From Caballeronia sp. SEWSISQ10-4 2 (lineage in GTDB: Bacteria > Pseudomonadota > Gammaproteobacteria > Burkholderiales > Burkholderiaceae): a stretch of DNA of 64,000 bases. The notes below the pieces were generated by a model, which worked only from the letters and a program-made list of their open reading frames with translations, had not been told where the DNA came from and ran no database searches. The stretch lies in assembly GCF_030464885.1 (NCBI RefSeq), contig NZ_JALPRJ010000007.1, positions 62,001-126,000 of the forward strand, read 5' to 3'. The position numbers and the translations under genes are program-made. This document shows positions 46,480-60,426 of the stretch, piece after piece (within the stretch, counting starts at the first letter, position 1; every line of letters begins with the position of its first letter).

Positions 46480-46564
46480 TTGCCGCTTGATCAGGACATT
46501 TGGCACGGCCGTTGCTGAGCGAGTTAGTGCAACACCCACGACGTTCTCTCAAAGGAGAGTCATC

Positions 46565-47059
46565 ATGGCTGAGAAGAAAACCATCGAACGCGCGCAGGCG
46601 GCCAGGCGCGCAGGGAAGTCGTCCAGCACGCAGGCCGGCGCGTTCGTCAAGGAGCAGATCGATCACATTCGCGAAGGCAAGCACGGCGCGAAGTCCGCCA
46701 GGCAGGCGATCGCGATCGGCTTGTCGGAGGCACGCAGGGCGGGTGTTGGCGTGAAGGCGCCGAAGAAGGGCACGGCATCCGCTACCACTCGCAAGAAAGC
46801 CGGGAAGGACACTCAGGCGGGCAAGCACAAGACTCAACGCAGCGCGAGCACGGAATCGAAGTTGACGCGCTCCGCCACGTCCACGCGTGTTCTGAAACGC
46901 GAGGGCACCAAGGCCGCTTCGCACAAGTCGCTCTCGAAGCAGGCGCATGCAAGTGCAAGCCGGCGTTCCGCGGCTGACCGGTCGGCGTCCGCCAAGAAGG
47001 GCTGGCAGACGCGCAGGAAGGCGGCATCCAAGGCGGGAGCGGTGCGGCACGCGCGCTAG
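46565..47059 (+). CDS. Basic DUF6496-like protein
   Basis: 164 residues from ATG 46565 with AAAGGAGAG upstream. The first about 60 residues follow the DUF6496 pattern of an N-terminal ERAQAARRAGKSSSTQAGAF and a helical GKHGAKSARQAIAIGLSEAR (a SASP-like turn seen in Burkholderia). The remainder is a Lys/Arg/Ser/Ala-rich tail. It is probably a small nucleic-acid-binding protein; function unknown. Ends before a 13-bp-stem terminator. Confidence 0.78.
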   Translation: MAEKKTIERAQAARRAGKSSSTQAGAFVKEQIDHIREGKHGAKSARQAIAIGLSEARRAGVGVKAPKKGTASATTRKKAGKDTQAGKHKTQRSASTESKLTRSATSTRVLKREGTKAASHKSLSKQAHASASRRSAADRSASAKKGWQTRRKAASKAGAVRHAR

Positions 47060-53746: not shown

Positions 53747-54058
53747 CCGAACATCGGCGTCAAGACGCTGGCGATCATGCGAAGTTCGCAAGCAATCGCC
53801 ATCGCGTTCCTGTTCGGGCCGATCACCACGCTGGCTTACTTGACGCTGAAAGCATCGGAGAATGCGGCCGCTTCGGCGCTCTTCACCATGTTCCGCAAGG
53901 TCGCGGGATCGATTGAAATCTCGCTGGCCACGGCGTCCATTGTCGAGCTCACGCGGGCGAACATGACGCACAATTCCGAGCACGTGACGCCGTTGAACCC
54001 GAACTACAACGCCGCACGCACAATAGGCCAGACCATGCAGCAGGCCGTGCCGGCCTGA
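53747..54058 (+). pseudogene. C-terminal remnant of a DHA2-type MFS transporter
   Basis: About 104 codons. AFLFGPITTLAYLTLKASENAAASALFTMFRKVAGSIEISLATA is the late-helix region of EmrB/QacA transporters (normally NAAASxLxxxFRNxGGSIGISLATA). It ends in the usual NPNYNAARTIGQTMQQAVPA-like tail. About 80 percent of the gene is missing upstream, so it is dead. Confidence 0.78.
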
Positions 54059-54086
54059 GGCAGCCACGCACAGCGGCTAGTAGTGT

Positions 54087-54377
54087 CTAAGAGAACAGCC
54101 AACTCACGCAGACCGCGAAGGCCGAAAGCAACCCGGCACCGCCCCAAACCACCGAACCGGAAAGGCTCGTCCCGAACACGGACCAATGAAAACTAAAAAT
54201 CGGATTTGAACCTGAGTGGCCCGCTGCAGCAAGCAGCAGCAAAACCGCGACTAGAAGCCCCCACTCGCTGCCAAGCCCAAACCACAACCCTGTCCACCGG
54301 CGCGAACGCCCCCACTGCACCAAAAACGAGCGTCCCCCAAGCCCTATCAGCCACACCGCTCCCCACCCCGCACTCAT
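54087..54377 (-). CDS. Small predicted membrane protein
   Basis: 96 residues from ATG 54377 (a TTG 54386 is also possible). Two or three hydrophobic segments: SAGWGAVWLIGLGG; WGLLVAVLLLLAAAG; GGAGLLSAFAVCVSWLFS. Tryptophan-rich, and codon use is richer in GGG than neighbours. I do not recognise the family; it sits at the edge of the decay zone and could itself be a remnant. Confidence 0.45.
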   Translation of the reverse strand: MSAGWGAVWLIGLGGRSFLVQWGRSRRWTGLWFGLGSEWGLLVAVLLLLAAAGHSGSNPIFSFHWSVFGTSLSGSVVWGGAGLLSAFAVCVSWLFS

Positions 54378-54573
54378 TTGAAGCAAAATGCCATCAAGCC
54401 CGCCAAAACAATGAGGAAAAACAAGTAGTAAAAAAATGGCACGTCTGTTGCTTAATTGTAGATACTGAAACTACCTAAGCGTCGGACAAGGCGTGGCCCG
54501 GCTTGATGAGCGGTATCGAGTCAGCACTTCCACGCAAAGGCGGCCTCAGGCCGCGATTAAAAAGGACGCACAG

Positions 54574-55980
54574 ATGCAGATCTACGACGAAATGCGTCAC
54601 GAGGAAACCGTGCGGGCGCACTACGCACGCTTCTCCCGGTGGCTTTCTACTCAAAGCCCCGAAACCATCGAGCGCAAGCGCGCGGAAGCCGATCTGCTGT
54701 TCAGGCGTGTCGGCATCACGTTTGCCGTGAACGGCGATCTGTCAGGCACCGAACGTCTGATTCCGTTCGACATGATTCCGCGCATCATCCCTGGCGACGA
54801 ATGGCGCAAGCTCGAAGCCGGCCTCCGGCAGAGGGTGCGTGCGCTGAACATGTTCATCCGCGACGTCTACCACGATCACGACATCGTCCGGGCAGGCAAG
54901 ATTCCCGCCGAACAGGTGTACACGAACGCGCAATACCGTCCCGAGATGCAAGGCGTGGATGTGCCGCTCGATGTGTACGCGCACGTTGCCGGCGTGGACG
55001 TGGTGCGCGCGGGCGACGCTGGCGAGTTCTACGTGCTGGAGGACAACCTCCGCGTGCCGTCGGGCGTGTCGTACATGCTCGAAAACCGCAAGATGATGAT
55101 GCGGCTCTTCCCCGAGTTGTTCGTGCAGAACCGCATCGCGCCGGTCGCGCATTATCCCGACCTGCTGCTCGAAACGCTGCGCTCGATCGCCCCGGCCGGC
55201 GTAGATGACCCCAACGTGGTTGTGCTCACGCCCGGCATGTACAACTCGGCGTACTTCGAGCACTCCTTCCTCGCGCAGCAAATGGGCGTGGAACTGGTCG
55301 AGGGCAAGGATCTTTTCGTCGATGAAAACTACGTGTTCATGCGCACGACGCAAGGGCCGAAGCGCGTCGATGTGATCTATCGAAGGCTGGACGACGACTT
55401 CATGGACCCGCTCGCATTCCGCGCGGATTCGGCTCTCGGCGTGCCGGGGCTGCTGACGTCGTATCGCGCCGGCCGTGTGGCATTGGCCAACGCGATGGGT
55501 ACGGGTATCGCCGACGACAAATCCATCTATCCGTTCGTCCCGGACATGATCGAGTTCTATCTCGGCGAAACGCCGATCCTGAACAACGTGCCTACATTCC
55601 AGTGCCGCAAGCCCGACGATCTCGCCTACACGCTCGCGCATCTTCCCGAGCTGGTCGTGAAGGAGGTTCACGGTGCGGGCGGTTACGGCATGCTGGTCGG
55701 GCCGGCATCGACGAAAGCGGAAATCGAGGCGTTTCGCGAACGCCTGATCGCGCGGCCGGATGGTTATATCGCCCAGCCAACGCTGGCGCTCTCCGCGTGC
55801 CCGACCTTCGTGGAATCGGGTATTGCGCCGCGCCATATCGACTTGCGGCCGTTCGTGTTGTCGGGCAAGGAAGTGACGATGGCCGCAGGCGGCCTGACTC
55901 GCGTGGCGTTGAAGGAGGGTTCGCTGGTCGTGAATTCGTCGCAGGGCGGCGGCACGAAAGACACCTGGATGGTGGACTAA
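54574..55980 (+). CDS. Circularly permuted ATP-grasp protein
   Basis: 468 residues from ATG 54574; earlier in-frame codons from 54493 are not needed. COG2308-type features: MQIYDEMRHEETVRAHYARF; ERLIPFDMIPRIIPGDEW; FYVLEDNLRVPSGVSYMLEN; VFMRTTQGPKRVDVIYRRLDDDFMDP; VVKEVHGAGGYGMLVGP, a glycine-rich nucleotide loop; and HIDLRPFVLSGKEV near the end. ATP-grasp enzymes join a carboxylate to an amine using ATP. In this family the partner is usually the alpha-E protein, as here. It opens the cluster; the next gene is 89 bp away. Confidence 0.92.
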   Translation: MQIYDEMRHEETVRAHYARFSRWLSTQSPETIERKRAEADLLFRRVGITFAVNGDLSGTERLIPFDMIPRIIPGDEWRKLEAGLRQRVRALNMFIRDVYHDHDIVRAGKIPAEQVYTNAQYRPEMQGVDVPLDVYAHVAGVDVVRAGDAGEFYVLEDNLRVPSGVSYMLENRKMMMRLFPELFVQNRIAPVAHYPDLLLETLRSIAPAGVDDPNVVVLTPGMYNSAYFEHSFLAQQMGVELVEGKDLFVDENYVFMRTTQGPKRVDVIYRRLDDDFMDPLAFRADSALGVPGLLTSYRAGRVALANAMGTGIADDKSIYPFVPDMIEFYLGETPILNNVPTFQCRKPDDLAYTLAHLPELVVKEVHGAGGYGMLVGPASTKAEIEAFRERLIARPDGYIAQPTLALSACPTFVESGIAPRHIDLRPFVLSGKEVTMAAGGLTRVALKEGSLVVNSSQGGGTKDTWMVD

Positions 55981-56069
55981 GCGCCCACCGGGACACCATC
56001 GGGACAGTATGCACGGGCGCGGTTTCAAGCGCAGCGCCCGCGCGCGCCACACTACAACGGAACGCCATC

Positions 56070-57026
56070 ATGATGCTAAGCCGCACAGCCGATCACCTTT
56101 TCTGGATGGCTCGCTACATGGAGCGTGCGGAAAATACTGCACGCATGCTCGATATCAACCTGAAGGGCATGCTACTGCCGCAGACGCCCGAGCACGCCGC
56201 GCGCGCACAACGCTCGGTACTCCGTATTTCGGAACTCGAATCGAAGTTTGAGGAGCGCTTCCCGGGCTCGGATTCGCGCGACGACATGCTGCACTTCATG
56301 GTCGCCGACACCGGCAATCCGTCGAGCATTAATTCCTGCCTGCATGCGGCCCGCGAAAACGCGCGCGCCGTGCGCGGCACCCTGACCACGGAGGCGTGGG
56401 AGACCATCAATTTCACGTGGCTCGAATTCGGCGAAAAACTCGCCGCGGGAGAGCTCGAAAAGAGCCCGGACATGCTGTTCGAATGGGTCAAGTACCGCTC
56501 GAATCTGTGTCGCGGCGTGATGGTCGGCACGGCGCTTCAGGATGACGCCTTCTGGTTCATCCAGCTCGGCATGTACCTGGAGCGGGCGGACAACACGGCG
56601 CGCATTCTCGACGTGCGTTTCGCCGATGCCGAACCGAACTCGCGTGAAGCCGCGCGTCAACTGGAAGACTTCTACTACTGGACCTCGATCCTGAGTTCGG
56701 TGTCGGCGCTTGAAATCTACCGGAAGGTTTATCGCGATGTCGTGACGCCGTCGCGGGTAGTGGAGCTGCTGATCCTCAATTCACAGATGCCGCGCTCGCT
56801 GCTGGCGTCGCTGGATGGCGTCTGCGCGACGCTCGACAAGCTGCGAACCAGCGGCTCGAACGAGTGTGAGCGGTTCGCCGGCAAGTTGCGTGCGGACGTG
56901 CTGTACATGGATATCCGCCAGATCCTTGAAACCGGCGTGCACGCCTATCTGACGCAATTCCTGAAACGGGTCGACGAGCTCGGTGTTCGCGTGATGCGCA
57001 CCTTCCTCATGTTGCCTCTTGCCTGA
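56070..57026 (+). CDS. Alpha-E domain protein (COG2307)
   Basis: 318 residues from ATG 56070 (or 56073). Largely helical and without membrane segments: MMLSRTADHLFWMARYMERA start, repeated YLERADNTARILDVRF motif near 170, and YYWTSILSSVSALEIYRKVY. The two internal MERAENTAR/LERADNTAR elements are 165 residues apart and reveal an internal duplication. Its role is unknown; fusions with the ATP-grasp domain in other bacteria suggest they form one enzyme complex. The transglutaminase starts 24 bp later. Confidence 0.9.
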   Translation: MMLSRTADHLFWMARYMERAENTARMLDINLKGMLLPQTPEHAARAQRSVLRISELESKFEERFPGSDSRDDMLHFMVADTGNPSSINSCLHAARENARAVRGTLTTEAWETINFTWLEFGEKLAAGELEKSPDMLFEWVKYRSNLCRGVMVGTALQDDAFWFIQLGMYLERADNTARILDVRFADAEPNSREAARQLEDFYYWTSILSSVSALEIYRKVYRDVVTPSRVVELLILNSQMPRSLLASLDGVCATLDKLRTSGSNECERFAGKLRADVLYMDIRQILETGVHAYLTQFLKRVDELGVRVMRTFLMLPLA

Positions 57027-57050
57027 ACGCATCCGTCCTGGGAAAACATC

Positions 57051-57848
57051 ATGCTTCTGACCATTCGTCATCACACGAGCTACCGCTACGCCGTGCCCGT
57101 GCAGTACTCCATCCAGCAACTGCGCTTGACCCCCGCCAACGGGTCGGCGCAGATGGTGCGGCGCTGGAATATCGATACCGTGGGCAAGCTCGACGTCACG
57201 CGCGACGCCTACGCCAATACGCTGCATACGCTGGTGCTGACGAAACCCCACATGGAGATTCACCTTTCCGTCACTGGCCAGGTGGAAACCACGTTGCTCG
57301 ACGACGGCCGCCTGAACGACGGTCCCGGCCGGATTCCGCTCCAGCATTACACCTGTGCGACCGCTCTGACCGAACCGGACGCCGCGATCCGCGAACTGGC
57401 GAACTCGGTGCCCAAGCTCGATTCACCGTCGGCGCTGATTGCGCTGGCGGAGAATATCGAAGCCAGGGTGCAATTCAAAACGGGCGTAACCGAAGTCAAG
57501 AGCACCGCTGCGCAGGCGCTGGAGCTCGGCAACGGCGTGTGCCAGGACCACGCGCATATCATGCTGGCGTGCTGCCGCGCGCGGGGGCTGCCGGCACGTT
57601 ACGTGAGCGGATATATCGATCCGGGTGATGTTCCGCATGCCGCGAGCCACGCGTGGGTGGATGTGTGGATCGACGACGGATGGGTGTCGGTGGACGTCAC
57701 GCACGCGGCGTTCGCCAGCGGCCGGTATTGCCGGCTCGCGGTTGCGCGCGACTACGAAGCGGCCGCGCCCGTGCGCGGTTCGCGCGTGGGCGGCAAGGAA
57801 GAGCGCATGAGCGTGGATGTTTCGGTGCAGGCAGCGGCCGACCAGTAA
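57051..57848 (+). CDS. Transglutaminase-like cysteine protease/amidase
   Basis: 265 residues. An N-terminal beta region (MLLTIRHHTSYRYAVPVQYS) precedes a transglutaminase core with Cys164 (NGVCQDHAHIML), His200 (ASHAWVDVW) and Asp215 (VSVDVTHAAF) - the full catalytic triad. Such proteins can cleave or form isopeptide/amide bonds. There is no signal peptide, so it is cytosolic like its partners. The anbu gene follows after a 252-bp spacer. Confidence 0.92.
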   Translation: MLLTIRHHTSYRYAVPVQYSIQQLRLTPANGSAQMVRRWNIDTVGKLDVTRDAYANTLHTLVLTKPHMEIHLSVTGQVETTLLDDGRLNDGPGRIPLQHYTCATALTEPDAAIRELANSVPKLDSPSALIALAENIEARVQFKTGVTEVKSTAAQALELGNGVCQDHAHIMLACCRARGLPARYVSGYIDPGDVPHAASHAWVDVWIDDGWVSVDVTHAAFASGRYCRLAVARDYEAAAPVRGSRVGGKEERMSVDVSVQAAADQ

Positions 57849-58100
57849 CAGTTCGCTGCGCCCGTGCTCGTCCGTGCATCGTCCGATACTGTGACATTCA
57901 AGCCCCACGCCCCATCCGCCGATATATATTGGAGCTGAGCTGGGGCGGCCGTGTTTGGAGCGCCTGAGACCAAACGGCGGGCAGAACGGCGAGCGGAATG
58001 CGGCGCGGTTATGGCGCCTCGCCGAGATCATGACGATCAAGGCGATTACAGCGATTACAGCGATTACAATACGAATTTGCTTCTTTCAGGAATTGGACGC
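57849..58100 (+). promoter_or_regulatory. Spacer and leader upstream of anbu with 9-bp tandem repeat
   Basis: 252 bp. An AT-rich GATATATATTGG (57921-57932) breaks the GC background and may mark an internal promoter, but no good -35 pairs with it. Just before the gene are three perfect GCGATTACA copies at 58042-58068. A CAGG ribosome-like element (58087-58090) is 10 nt before the ATG. Confidence 0.45.
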
Positions 58101-58973
58101 ATGACTTATTGCGTGGCAATGCGCGTTGACGAGGGACTGGTGTTCCTGTCCGATACACGCACGAATGCCGGGGTCGACCATGTGAGCGCAGCCCGCAAGA
58201 TGGCGGTCTTCGAACAGCCGGGCGACCGCGTCCTCGTGCTGCTCGCAGCGGGCAATCTCGCCCTGACGCAGGCAGTCATGCAACTGCTGTCGGAACCGGC
58301 GCCCGAAGACAAAACCACGCTGTACAACGCGCCCACCATGGCGGAAGCGGCGCGGCTGGTGGGCGACGCGGTGCGGGAAGTACATCGGCGAGATGCGGCT
58401 ACGCTCGCGGAATTCAGCGTCGACTTCAATTGCAGCTTTATCCTCGGCGGCCAGATCCGCGGAGCGAATACGCGCTTGTTCATGATTTACTCCGCGGGCA
58501 ACTTCGTGGAGTCGTCGCTGGTGAGCCCGTATTTCCAGATCGGCGAATCGAAATATGGCAAACCGATCATCGATCGTGTCGTCACGCCCGCCACGCCGCT
58601 GGACGAAGTCGCGAAATGCGCGCTGGTGTCCATGGACTCCACGCTGCGTTCGAATTTGTCAGTCGGATTGCCACTCGATCTGCTCGTATATGAAAAGGAC
58701 TCGCTGCGGGTCACGCGCTTCTCCACAATCGACAACGACAACCAGTATTTCCAGATGATTCATCGCACCTGGGGTGAAAGGCTGCGGCAGATTTTCGGCG
58801 AGATTCCGAATCCGACCTGGGCCGATCCCGCCAACGTGCCGCTGCGGGAGCGCGAAACGGTGTCGAACGTGCCGCGCTTGACCAACAATGATCTGCGCGC
58901 CGAACCCGATACGTCAGCGCCGCCGTTTCAGACGCTGATGCAGCCGACGGAAAGCGGGCGAGGGCAGCATTGA
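58101..58973 (+). CDS. Anbu-type proteasome-like protease
   Basis: 290 residues from ATG 58101. After Met removal, MTYCVAMRVDEGLVFLSDTR places Thr1 as nucleophile, with Asp17 (SDTR) and Lys32 (AARKMAV) as in the proteasome beta fold. The long frame from 57951 would bury Thr1 and is rejected. The core matches Anbu (bacterial ancestral beta subunit): SCSFILGGQIRG-like NCSFILGGQIRGANTRLFMIYSAGNF and GESKYGKPIIDRVV. The last 50 residues are a Pro/Glu-rich tail. Anbu forms ring or helical oligomers; its substrate is unknown. Confidence 0.93.
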   Translation: MTYCVAMRVDEGLVFLSDTRTNAGVDHVSAARKMAVFEQPGDRVLVLLAAGNLALTQAVMQLLSEPAPEDKTTLYNAPTMAEAARLVGDAVREVHRRDAATLAEFSVDFNCSFILGGQIRGANTRLFMIYSAGNFVESSLVSPYFQIGESKYGKPIIDRVVTPATPLDEVAKCALVSMDSTLRSNLSVGLPLDLLVYEKDSLRVTRFSTIDNDNQYFQMIHRTWGERLRQIFGEIPNPTWADPANVPLRERETVSNVPRLTNNDLRAEPDTSAPPFQTLMQPTESGRGQH

Positions 58974-59048
58974 TCGGGTTCCGATGTCGTGGACGTTTAA
59001 AAGCCCGCTGTCGGATGCCGTGGGCTCGATGAGATAGGTGGCCTGAAT

Positions 59049-59098
59049 AAAACAGAAACGGCCCAATCGGCTTACGCCGATTGGGCCGTTTCTGTTTT
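59049..59098. terminator. Strong terminator after anbu
   Basis: A 23-bp perfect stem at 59049-59071 / 59076-59098 (core GGCCCAATCGGC), 4-nt loop TTAC, with A4 and T5 runs on the two sides, so it can work in both directions. Confidence 0.92.
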
Positions 59099-59152
59099 TG
59101 CTTTTCAAAATGTCATCGCAGCAACCCGGTGACCGTTTTCCGGCGCGCATAA

Positions 59153-59187
59153 AAAAACAGCCATCGATGAAGCCGACGGCTGTTTTT
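59153..59187 (-). terminator. Terminator of the porin gene
   Basis: On the minus strand, stem AAAAACAGCCATCG (59153-59166 plus strand) against CGACGGCTGTTTTT (59174-59187) with one G-T-type mismatch and a 7-nt loop; the A run on plus becomes the T run. Confidence 0.8.
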
Positions 59188-59244
59188 GAACCGAAGTCGA
59201 AATCGGCGCGCTGAGCGGTGAAATGCCGCGCGCCGGATTCAGCT

Positions 59245-60426
59245 TTAGAACTTGTGACGGATACCGACGATCACCATTTCTTGCGTGCTCGTACCAGCGA
59301 AGCCGAACGAACCGATCGATGCTTGCGCGTCTTGCGTTACGCGAGTTGTTACGCCGCCATTCGTGACGTACGTAGCTTGCGTGCCGCTTGCGTGCTGGTA
59401 AGCACCAAGTGCGTAGAAATCCGTACGCTTGGACAGCGTGTAGTCCGCACCGATACCGACTTGATGGTACTTGGCAGCCGTGTCGCCACTAGCTTTCTCG
59501 TACGTGTAGCCTGTACCGATCAGGAGCGCCGGCGTAAGCTGGTAGTTCGCGAACACGCTGCCGACGTTGTACGTCTCTGTCGACGTGTATGCCGAGAAGC
59601 CGTCCGGACGGTACTTCGCATTGCTGTACGAACCGCCGAACGTTACCGGGCCGATAGCGTACTGAGCTGCTGCACGAGCGATGCCGATCGAGTGAGCCGA
59701 CGAGTAGCCATTGTTGATCGGGCTGTCGAAGATCGAATCTGACGACGGGCTATTCCAGTTCGATCCAGCTGCAGCCGTACGGCCTGCGCTCGGGTTGCTT
59801 GTGTAGTAGTAACCGGCAGCCAAGCCCAACGGGCCGTTGTTATACGCAACTGCACCGCTCCACGTCTGGCCTTGACCCGTCGTGCCAGCGCCGTTGCTGA
59901 AACCATACATGCCTTCGAATTGCAGGCCGGCATAGTTCGGCGAAACGTACTTCACAGCGTTGTTTACACGCGAGCTGTTGTCGTAGTTGTCGACGTCACC
60001 CGGCGTACCGACGATCGACGCCCAGTAGTTGTCACCCGTGATGCCTTGCACCATGTCGACGAGCGGATCGTATTGACGACCGAGCGTGACCGTACCGAGC
60101 TTGTCAGACGTCAAGCCGACGAATGCCTGGCGACCAAATTCGCGACCACCTTGGTTCAACTTGCCTGTGTTGACGTCAAAGCCGTTTTCCAATTGGAAAA
60201 TTGCCTTCAAACCGCCGCCCAGATCTTCCTGGCCTTTCAGGCCCCAGCGATCGCCGGACAGGGTGCCGCTATTCGTGCCGATCTGCTTCTGGTTGCCGTT
60301 CGCGTTGTGAACATAAATGAGACCGGTATCGATCACGCCATACAGGGTCACGCTGTTTTGCGCGTGAGCCGCGCCAGCTGTGCCGAGCAGTGCCAGCGAA
60401 AGGGAAGTCAGTGCGAAACGTTTCAT
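59245..60426 (-). CDS. Trimeric Gram-negative porin (OmpC/DcaP-like Burkholderia type)
   Basis: 393 residues. The signal is MKRFALTSLSLALLGTAGAAHA, cut at AHA-QNS. The mature protein starts with QNSVTLYGVIDTGLIYVHN, the general porin start, and ends in VIVGIRHKF with the terminal Phe required for outer-membrane insertion. Loop L3 region RQAFVGLTSDKLGTVTLGRQ is present. It is the diffusion pore for small hydrophilic solutes. The preceding 600 bp hold its promoter region; GGAGAACCTG lies before ATG. Confidence 0.94.
   Translation of the reverse strand: MKRFALTSLSLALLGTAGAAHAQNSVTLYGVIDTGLIYVHNANGNQKQIGTNSGTLSGDRWGLKGQEDLGGGLKAIFQLENGFDVNTGKLNQGGREFGRQAFVGLTSDKLGTVTLGRQYDPLVDMVQGITGDNYWASIVGTPGDVDNYDNSSRVNNAVKYVSPNYAGLQFEGMYGFSNGAGTTGQGQTWSGAVAYNNGPLGLAAGYYYTSNPSAGRTAAAGSNWNSPSSDSIFDSPINNGYSSAHSIGIARAAAQYAIGPVTFGGSYSNAKYRPDGFSAYTSTETYNVGSVFANYQLTPALLIGTGYTYEKASGDTAAKYHQVGIGADYTLSKRTDFYALGAYQHASGTQATYVTNGGVTTRVTQDAQASIGSFGFAGTSTQEMVIVGIRHKF

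What the first reader, a model, noticed from the sequence alone, without database searches (positions are those of the whole stretch)
54574..58973. Ligase-plus-proteasome cluster: ATP-grasp, alpha-E, transglutaminase, Anbu
Four cytosolic genes on one strand combine a carboxylate-amine ligase (permuted ATP-grasp with its alpha-E partner), an active-triad transglutaminase fold (Cys164/His200/Asp215) and a proteasome-like protease with intact Thr1/Asp17/Lys32. Comparative genomics has described this association, but the peptide or tag made and removed is unknown. The layout suggests a modification-and-degradation circuit, in the manner of a minimal tagging system. No candidate tag gene is visible within or beside the cluster.
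Basis: partly seen in the sequence, partly recalled or inferred. Interest (0 to 1): 0.8.

Follow-up and report, generated by a model that had tools for sequence, protein, structure and literature searches.

The report
Nitrogen-switched ligase operon with proteasome cousin
This is a known type of four-gene bacterial cluster, holding a bond-making enzyme and a relative of the proteasome, with an exact match to a nitrogen-starvation-type promoter sequence in front of it; it is therefore likely switched on when nitrogen runs short and is predicted to build and trim an unknown amide-linked molecule, which would tell researchers under which condition to look for that molecule.

Summary
In detail: permuted ATP-grasp, alpha-E, transglutaminase fold and Anbu lie on one strand with intact signature residues. 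The system is known (Iyer 2009; P. putida PP_2688-2685; solved Anbu structures).

Added here:
(1) An exact sigma-54 promoter sequence (54437-54452), one of 7 in the 9.4-Mb genome, precedes the operon. Sites of >=10/12 precede the ATP-grasp gene in 38 of 90 four-gene operons (3.1 expected by shuffling), but Anbu in 3 of 90 and lone Anbu in 1 of 61. NtrC-like boxes behave alike. Two large families mostly lack the sites.
(2) In 12 genomes of one family whose ligase pair lies apart from Anbu, a site of >=9/12 sits before the ligase in 12 of 12 (>=10 in 8).
(3) Anbu rarely occurs without alpha-E (3 of 161 genomes); alpha-E often lacks Anbu (74 of 232).
(4) No extra gene is shared by more than 12 of 90 operons, so no linked tag was found.

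I read it as a nitrogen-starvation ligase module with Anbu as optional product hydrolase. Protein tagging loses support but is not excluded. Substrate unknown. Published P. putida data showing induction in an rpoN mutant conflict with strict sigma-54 dependence.

The parts
54316..54332 (+). weak NtrC-like box TGCACCAAAAACGAGCG, centred about 138 nt before the start site expected from the sigma-54 box
   Evidence: 10 of 14 positions of a recalled consensus; the same-genus locus L034 has 12 of 14 at the same distance (-259 against -258 from the ATP-grasp start)
54437..54452 (+). sigma-54 -24/-12 promoter sequence TGGCACGTCTGTTGCT
   Evidence: 12 of 12 scored positions; 7 exact matches in the 9.44-Mb genome
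54574..55980 (+). circularly permuted ATP-grasp ligase, 468 aa
   Evidence: PF14403 549.8 bits; 3n6x 714 bits
56070..57026 (+). alpha-E protein, 318 aa, internally duplicated with one ER motif per half
   Evidence: PF04168 302.4 bits (run on 56064-57026); hhalign of the two halves, probability 99.1
57051..57848 (+). transglutaminase-fold enzyme, 265 aa, Cys164/His200/Asp215
   Evidence: PF01841 and PF08379; triad
58101..58973 (+). Anbu, 290 aa, Thr1/Asp17/Lys32
   Evidence: 5loy 329 bits; residues; single Anbu copy in the genome
59052..59095 (+). terminator-like hairpin (20 pairs counted) after Anbu
   Evidence: pattern scan; consensus match only

Best explanation
This is an ordinary member of the known Anbu operon (permuted ATP-grasp ligase, alpha-E, transglutaminase-fold enzyme, Anbu), it is preceded by an exact sigma-54 consensus promoter sequence, and it is predicted to make and then trim an amide-linked small molecule or short peptide when nitrogen runs short. 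Shown here: gene content, intact signature residues, the promoter sequence, its enrichment before the ligase gene in relatives, and the one-sided dependence of Anbu on alpha-E across genomes. Inferred from the families: the ATP-grasp enzyme activates a carboxylate with ATP and joins it to an amine, with alpha-E as its partner; the transglutaminase-fold enzyme and Anbu cut, transfer or trim that amide or isopeptide bond. Inferred from distribution: the ligase pair is the core and Anbu an optional hydrolase acting on the product. Inferred from promoter anatomy and published expression in relatives: NtrC with sigma-54 would switch the operon on under nitrogen limitation. I commit to a small-molecule or short-peptide substrate rather than a genetically encoded protein tag, because no tag gene or other widely shared neighbour accompanies the operon.
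For: Exact sigma-54 box, 1 of 7 in 9.44 Mb. Sites >=10/12 before the ATP-grasp gene in 38 of 90 four-gene operons; shuffles 3.1, opposite strand 4; before Anbu 3 of 90, before TG 1 of 90, before lone Anbu 1 of 61. NtrC-like boxes >=11/14: 28 of 90 against 2.56; Anbu 4 of 90 against 3.28; lone Anbu 2 of 61 against 1.94. Ligase pairs lying apart from Anbu: >=9/12 in 12 of 12, >=10 in 8 of 12. Anbu without alpha-E 3 of 161, alpha-E without Anbu 74 of 232, Fisher p 6e-48 (relatedness not corrected). Genomes without Anbu are scattered among Anbu-linked ligases in the tree (6 label changes for 7 rows). rpoN (two) and ntrC (one over cut-off) in the host. Published passages: P. putida PP_2685/PP_2688 induced by nitrogen limitation; a sister cluster in B. 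cenocepacia is NtrC- and sigma-54-dependent. The ATP-grasp of the Y. bercovieri operon releases phosphate from ATP.
Against: P. putida PP_2686-2688 stay induced in an rpoN mutant (PP_2688: wild type 14.66, rpoN 19.61), and PP_2685 (Anbu) is not induced in wild type there (1.12) (PMC7801951); the urea transporter urtA, another putative NtrC target of that table, behaves likewise (12.7 and 11.12). The sites are missing in much of the phylum: 1 of 17 loci in f63, 0 of 7 in f53, 18 of 31 families without one. The nearest named Caballeronia locus, L129, scores only 8/12. The window's own NtrC-like box is weak (10/14). In loci of genomes without Anbu only 3 of 7 ligases have a site >=10. At the looser NtrC cut of 10, TG upstream regions are enriched too (33 of 90 against 16.6). 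Substrate, product and reaction order are untested; the authors of PMC5666114 prefer protein degradation over peptide synthesis.
Confidence: 0.5

Rival explanations
1. Protein tagging and removal: ATP-grasp/alpha-E add a peptide or amino acid to proteins, TG transfers or trims it, and Anbu removes the tag or degrades the target (first reader; one of the hypotheses listed in PMC6376114).
For: Two amide-handling enzymes and a proteasome relative in one operon; hypothesis in print; an unlinked tag gene or a single amino acid as tag cannot be excluded here.
Against: No gene shared by more than 12 of 90 operons; no conserved short ORF in the TG-Anbu gap of 9 relatives; Anbu absent in 74 of 232 alpha-E genomes; no specific interactions and no peptidase activity found in vitro.
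Confidence: 0.2
2. Anbu mainly degrades proteins for amino-acid recycling in nitrogen starvation, and the other three genes only supply or activate it.
For: Listed as a hypothesis in PMC6376114 and favoured in PMC5666114, where inhibitor binding was seen; nitrogen-linked expression in P. putida.
Against: Promoter sequences go with the ligase, not with Anbu; the ligase pair persists without Anbu, the opposite of what helper genes should do; no partner ATPase is known.
Confidence: 0.13
3. The operon answers sigma-54 with another activator than NtrC, or a signal other than nitrogen.
For: Many NtrC-like matches in the genome (111, one gene over the ntrC cut-off); weak NtrC-like box in the window; induction without rpoN in one P. 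putida study.
Against: NtrC-like boxes enriched before the ligase gene; nitrogen links in transcriptomes of two genera.
Confidence: 0.15

Closest known systems
Anbu operon of Iyer et al. 2009 (known to me through PMC6376114 and PMC5666114), e.g. Y. bercovieri and P. putida PP_2688-PP_2685
   Same: Same four genes, order and strand; same signature residues; P. putida operon nitrogen-regulated.
   Different: Nothing in gene content. Wider TG-Anbu gap (252 nt against a median of 38 in 63 operons) and a roughly 50-residue, poorly conserved Anbu tail.
B. cenocepacia H111 cluster I35_5080-5083 (DUF404/407, DUF403, TG, large TG)
   Same: Same ligase, alpha-E and TG types; NtrC- and sigma-54-dependent (PMC5491218 passages).
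   Different: Has a large TG and no Anbu among the genes listed; corresponds to a sister cluster (the window's own genome holds two Anbu-less clusters, L126 and L127).
3n6x, annotated as putative glutathionylspermidine synthase
   Same: Full-length homologue of the ATP-grasp protein (714 bits).
   Different: The title is only an annotation; a profile of this family finds no other solved chain at E <= 10, so no enzyme with known substrates is close by sequence.

Membership tests
Anbu operon | ATP-grasp, alpha-E, TG and Anbu genes adjacent on one strand in this order | tested here: met
Anbu operon | Anbu with Thr1, Asp17, Lys32 and homology to solved Anbu | tested here: met
Anbu operon | operon ATP-grasp turns over ATP | not testable with these tools
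   shown for Y. bercovieri only
NtrC/sigma-54 regulon | -24/-12 promoter sequence | tested here: met
   12 of 12; rarity
NtrC/sigma-54 regulon | NtrC site 100-150 nt upstream of the start site (spacing from PMC5491218) | tested here: inconclusive
   10 of 14 at the right distance in the window; enriched in the set
NtrC/sigma-54 regulon | rpoN and ntrC in the genome | tested here: met
NtrC/sigma-54 regulon | expression lost in ntrC or rpoN mutants | not testable with these tools
   literature split: for; against
Encoded-tag degradation system (ubiquitin- or Pup-like) | tag gene in or beside the cluster | tested here: not met
   (ORFs of 30 aa or more, 5 kb each side, 90 operons); an unlinked tag was not tested
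Encoded-tag degradation system (ubiquitin- or Pup-like) | conserved ATPase unfoldase beside the protease | tested here: not met
   no neighbour family in more than 12 of 90 operons; no dedicated ATPase search was run

The most novel reading that the evidence does not exclude
Anbu, a bacterial cousin of the proteasome, is not a protein-quality protease but the product hydrolase of a nitrogen-starvation pathway: ATP-grasp and alpha-E store or salvage nitrogen in an unknown amide-linked peptide or amino-acid conjugate, and Anbu and the transglutaminase-fold enzyme release it. The NtrC-controlled ligase is the core, and Anbu an add-on lost several times.
Probability: 0.28. Interest if true: 0.8.

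Novelty: new member of a known kind. Interest (0 to 1): 0.42.

Why it matters
The function of the Anbu operon is a long-standing open question; the published assays that I saw used standard proteasome substrates and found no activity. The promoter and distribution evidence gives a growth condition (ammonium limitation), a core to delete first (the ligase pair) and a predicted order (ligase before Anbu), which makes the product searchable by metabolomics in a laboratory Pseudomonas.

Tried and rejected
Tag gene: clustering of ORFs of 30 aa or more within 5 kb of 90 four-gene operons gave at most 12 loci per family, in mixed positions, and no family with 3 or more members between the genes; BLAST at E 1e-4 can miss very short peptides. 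Short ORFs (12 aa or more) in the TG-Anbu gap of the window and 8 relatives are not conserved.

Fused ATP-grasp/alpha-E model (P0241) meant to show the interface: poor (pLDDT 57), not used.

Replacement of Anbu: 8 downstream ORFs from 6 loci (L221, L222, L224, L225, L227, L228) gave unrelated or no Pfam families; L223 and L226 were not tested, and L221's genome has Anbu elsewhere.

Amino-acid permease upstream of the own paralogue L126 as a substrate hint: only neighbouring ORFs were listed for other loci, the recurrence was not tested by family, and I drew nothing from it.

Motifs: the sigma-54 pattern was recalled and later seen in PMC5491218 (GGcacg-N4-ttGC); the NtrC pattern is recalled and comes from no call.

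Print status: searches (open-licence library) listed no paper that I saw to report that the promoter goes with the ligase rather than Anbu. Iyer 2009 and both Hervas papers are not held. [quoted passage not shown]

Limits of the sets: one search did not list all matches, so 7 of 98 positive genera were not fetched; one search kept only the best 80 of at least 591, hence close relatives.
Full report
Observation. Pfam assigns CP_ATPgrasp_2, Alpha-E, Bact_transglu_N plus Transglut_core, and Proteasome; NCBIfam has no match. Solved relatives exist for the ATP-grasp (3n6x, 714 bits), the TG core (3isr, 47 bits) and Anbu (5loy, 329 bits), none for alpha-E by sequence. A terminator-like hairpin lies at 59052-59095, and the sigma-70 pattern scan of 54050-59250 found one site, on the - strand. 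The nearest protein with a species name is from Caballeronia sordidicola (94% identity), so the host is probably a Caballeronia (inference).

Promoter. Upstream of the ATP-grasp gene stands TGGCACGTCTGTTGCT (54437-54452), 12 of 12 positions of the sigma-54 -24/-12 consensus. The genome of 9.44 Mb has 7 exact matches on both strands, against 2 for the reversed pattern. A second of the 7 lies in the same window at 46501. The host has two rpoN genes and one ntrC gene over the family cut-offs. In the 8 close relatives compared a box of 10 or 12 of 12 is kept although the 300 nt upstream are only 34-66% identical to the window; the named Caballeronia glebae locus L129 is an exception (best 8 of 12).

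Is it general? Of 397 Pseudomonadota genomes, 161 have Anbu. I fetched 92 Anbu loci from 91 genera (one genome gave two); 7 of the 98 positive genera had no listed coordinates and were not fetched. Another 80 named loci, mostly Burkholderiales, are the best 80 of at least 591. Four-gene operons: 62 of the 92 and 27 of the 80, with the window 90. The rest of the 92: 20 with no partner within 4.5 kb, 5 with ATP-grasp and alpha-E on the other strand, 4 with those two but no TG found, 1 rearranged. Sigma-54 matches of at least 10 of 12 within 500 nt upstream of the ATP-grasp gene: 38 of 90, against 3.1 from shuffles and 4 on the opposite strand; at least 11: 17 (0.35; 0); 12: 5 (0; 0). Controls in the same loci: upstream of Anbu 3 of 90 (shuffles 2.85), of TG 1 of 90 (2.75); lone Anbu 1 of 61 (2.05). 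NtrC-like boxes of at least 11 of 14: ATP-grasp 28 of 90 (2.56), Anbu 4 of 90 (3.28), TG 5 of 90 (1.98), lone Anbu 2 of 61 (1.94); at least 12: ATP-grasp 11 (0.2), Anbu 0, TG 0, lone Anbu 1 (0.2); at the looser cut of 10 TG is enriched too (33 against 16.6). The rows are related, so these are not independent trials. Counted by family in the about-one-per-genus set (73 loci with an ATP-grasp gene, 31 families), 13 families have at least one site of 10 or more; f63 has it in 1 of 17 loci and f53 in 0 of 7.

A natural experiment. In family f2 (same order as the host; the named Comamonadaceae loci mostly show the same lone Anbu) the ATP-grasp/alpha-E pair lies apart from Anbu. I fetched 12 such pairs; the Anbu loci of 10 of these genomes were examined and stand alone, the other two (G171, G394) were judged only from different contigs. 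All 12 have a sigma-54 site of at least 9 of 12 upstream, 8 of 12 at least 10. No shuffle control was run for this set; the shuffle rates were 13.9 and 3.1 of 90. One further unlinked pair (L221, family f10) scores 10. NtrC-like boxes in 11 of the 12: 2 at 11 or more against 0.54 expected, so not clear. In the ATP-grasp tree the 12 form one clade nested among Anbu-linked relatives (quick tree, SH-aLRT only). The simplest reading is one separation, after which the promoter stayed with the ligase. Large TG frames (over 900 aa) in 10 of the loci examined score 10 or 11 in 4 and 8 or 9 in 6; DUF2126 was confirmed by Pfam in one, L212.

Who needs whom. Of 397 genomes: both 158, Anbu without alpha-E 3 (one genus), alpha-E without Anbu 74, neither 162. 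In the tree 7 ligases from genomes without Anbu are scattered (6 label changes), which points to repeated loss of Anbu. Of these 7 ligases, 3 have a sigma-54 site of 10 or more. The alpha-E count is by genome and includes paralogues; the host itself has three alpha-E genes. The asymmetry fits Anbu acting on the ligase's product (inference).

Neighbours. No family of ORFs of 30 aa or more within 5 kb occurs in more than 12 of 90 operons, and none has 3 or more members between the genes. The TG-Anbu gap holds no conserved short ORF in the window and 8 relatives.

Alpha-E. Its halves align with each other (hhalign probability 99.1, 133 columns), each with an ER motif. The AF2 model is helical (pLDDT 85) without a Foldseek match at E <= 0.001.

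Literature (passages only). PMC6376114: operon described; no peptidase activity, no specific interactions found, ATP-grasp releases phosphate from ATP; several untested hypotheses. PMC5666114: structures; degradation preferred over peptide synthesis. PMC8050072: PP_2685 log2 4.44 and PP_2688 log2 3.99, nitrate over ammonium; the PP_2688 promoter responds 3.7-fold to nitrogen depletion, the PP_2685 promoter tested alone did not. PMC3325844: PP2685 11.1, PP2686 6.6, PP2687 7.1-fold, N- over C-limited. PMC5491218: I35_5080-5083 NtrC- and sigma-54-dependent. PMC3597751: these domains associate with urea metabolism domains in marine metagenomes. PMC12316311: COG3484 enriched in predicted sigma-54 regulons. 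Against: PMC7801951: PP_2686-2688 still induced in an rpoN mutant, PP_2685 not induced in wild type; urtA, another putative NtrC target there, also stays induced. PMC5748707, a Paraburkholderia nitrogen-starvation transcriptome, does not contain the six terms searched in its main text.

Mechanism. Established for the families: ATP-grasp ligases go through an acyl phosphate to an amide; TG folds and Ntn-hydrolases break or transfer such bonds. I read the operon as a nitrogen-starvation ligase module whose product TG and, where present, Anbu trim. The small-molecule or short-peptide substrate is my commitment and is inferred. Not shown: transcription in this host, substrate, product, reaction order.

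Verdict. An ordinary member of a known system. The tagging idea loses support but is not excluded. The nitrogen link, partly in print, is extended here and shown, by promoter sequence only, to go with the ligase. On checking I lowered the main confidence from 0.55 to 0.50 and the novel case from 0.30 to 0.28, because of the L129 exception, the 3-of-7 result in genomes without Anbu and the unclear NtrC boxes of the unlinked pairs.

Noticed in passing
window 46501-46516 (+): A second exact sigma-54 consensus (TGGCACGGCCGTTGCT), about 50 nt before an ATG at 46566 that opens a small Lys/Ala-rich frame; two of the genome's seven exact sites lie in this window.
   Followed up: partly
L126 (G000:C143) and L127 (G000:C55): Two sister clusters without Anbu in the host genome: ATP-grasp, alpha-E and TG beside an amino-acid permease, and a fused ATP-grasp/alpha-E with a 1164-aa TG-containing frame and two further TGs.
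   Followed up: partly
L057 (G094) and genomes G248, G339: The only three Anbu genomes without an alpha-E match, all of one genus.
   Followed up: no
window 58821-58970: The last 50 residues of Anbu are poorly conserved among its 120 closest relatives: median identity 40% against 81% for the core.
   Followed up: partly
L035 (genus g2, 1.7-Mb genome): A 13-of-14 NtrC-like box 80 nt before the ATP-grasp gene without a good sigma-54 site nearby, perhaps NtrC working with another sigma factor.
   Followed up: no
L040, L059, L063, L064, L069: A divergent ATP-grasp subfamily whose pair is transcribed away from Anbu with no TG found nearby; in L064 a zinc-metallopeptidase-like gene (PF15887) lies next to Anbu.
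   Followed up: partly
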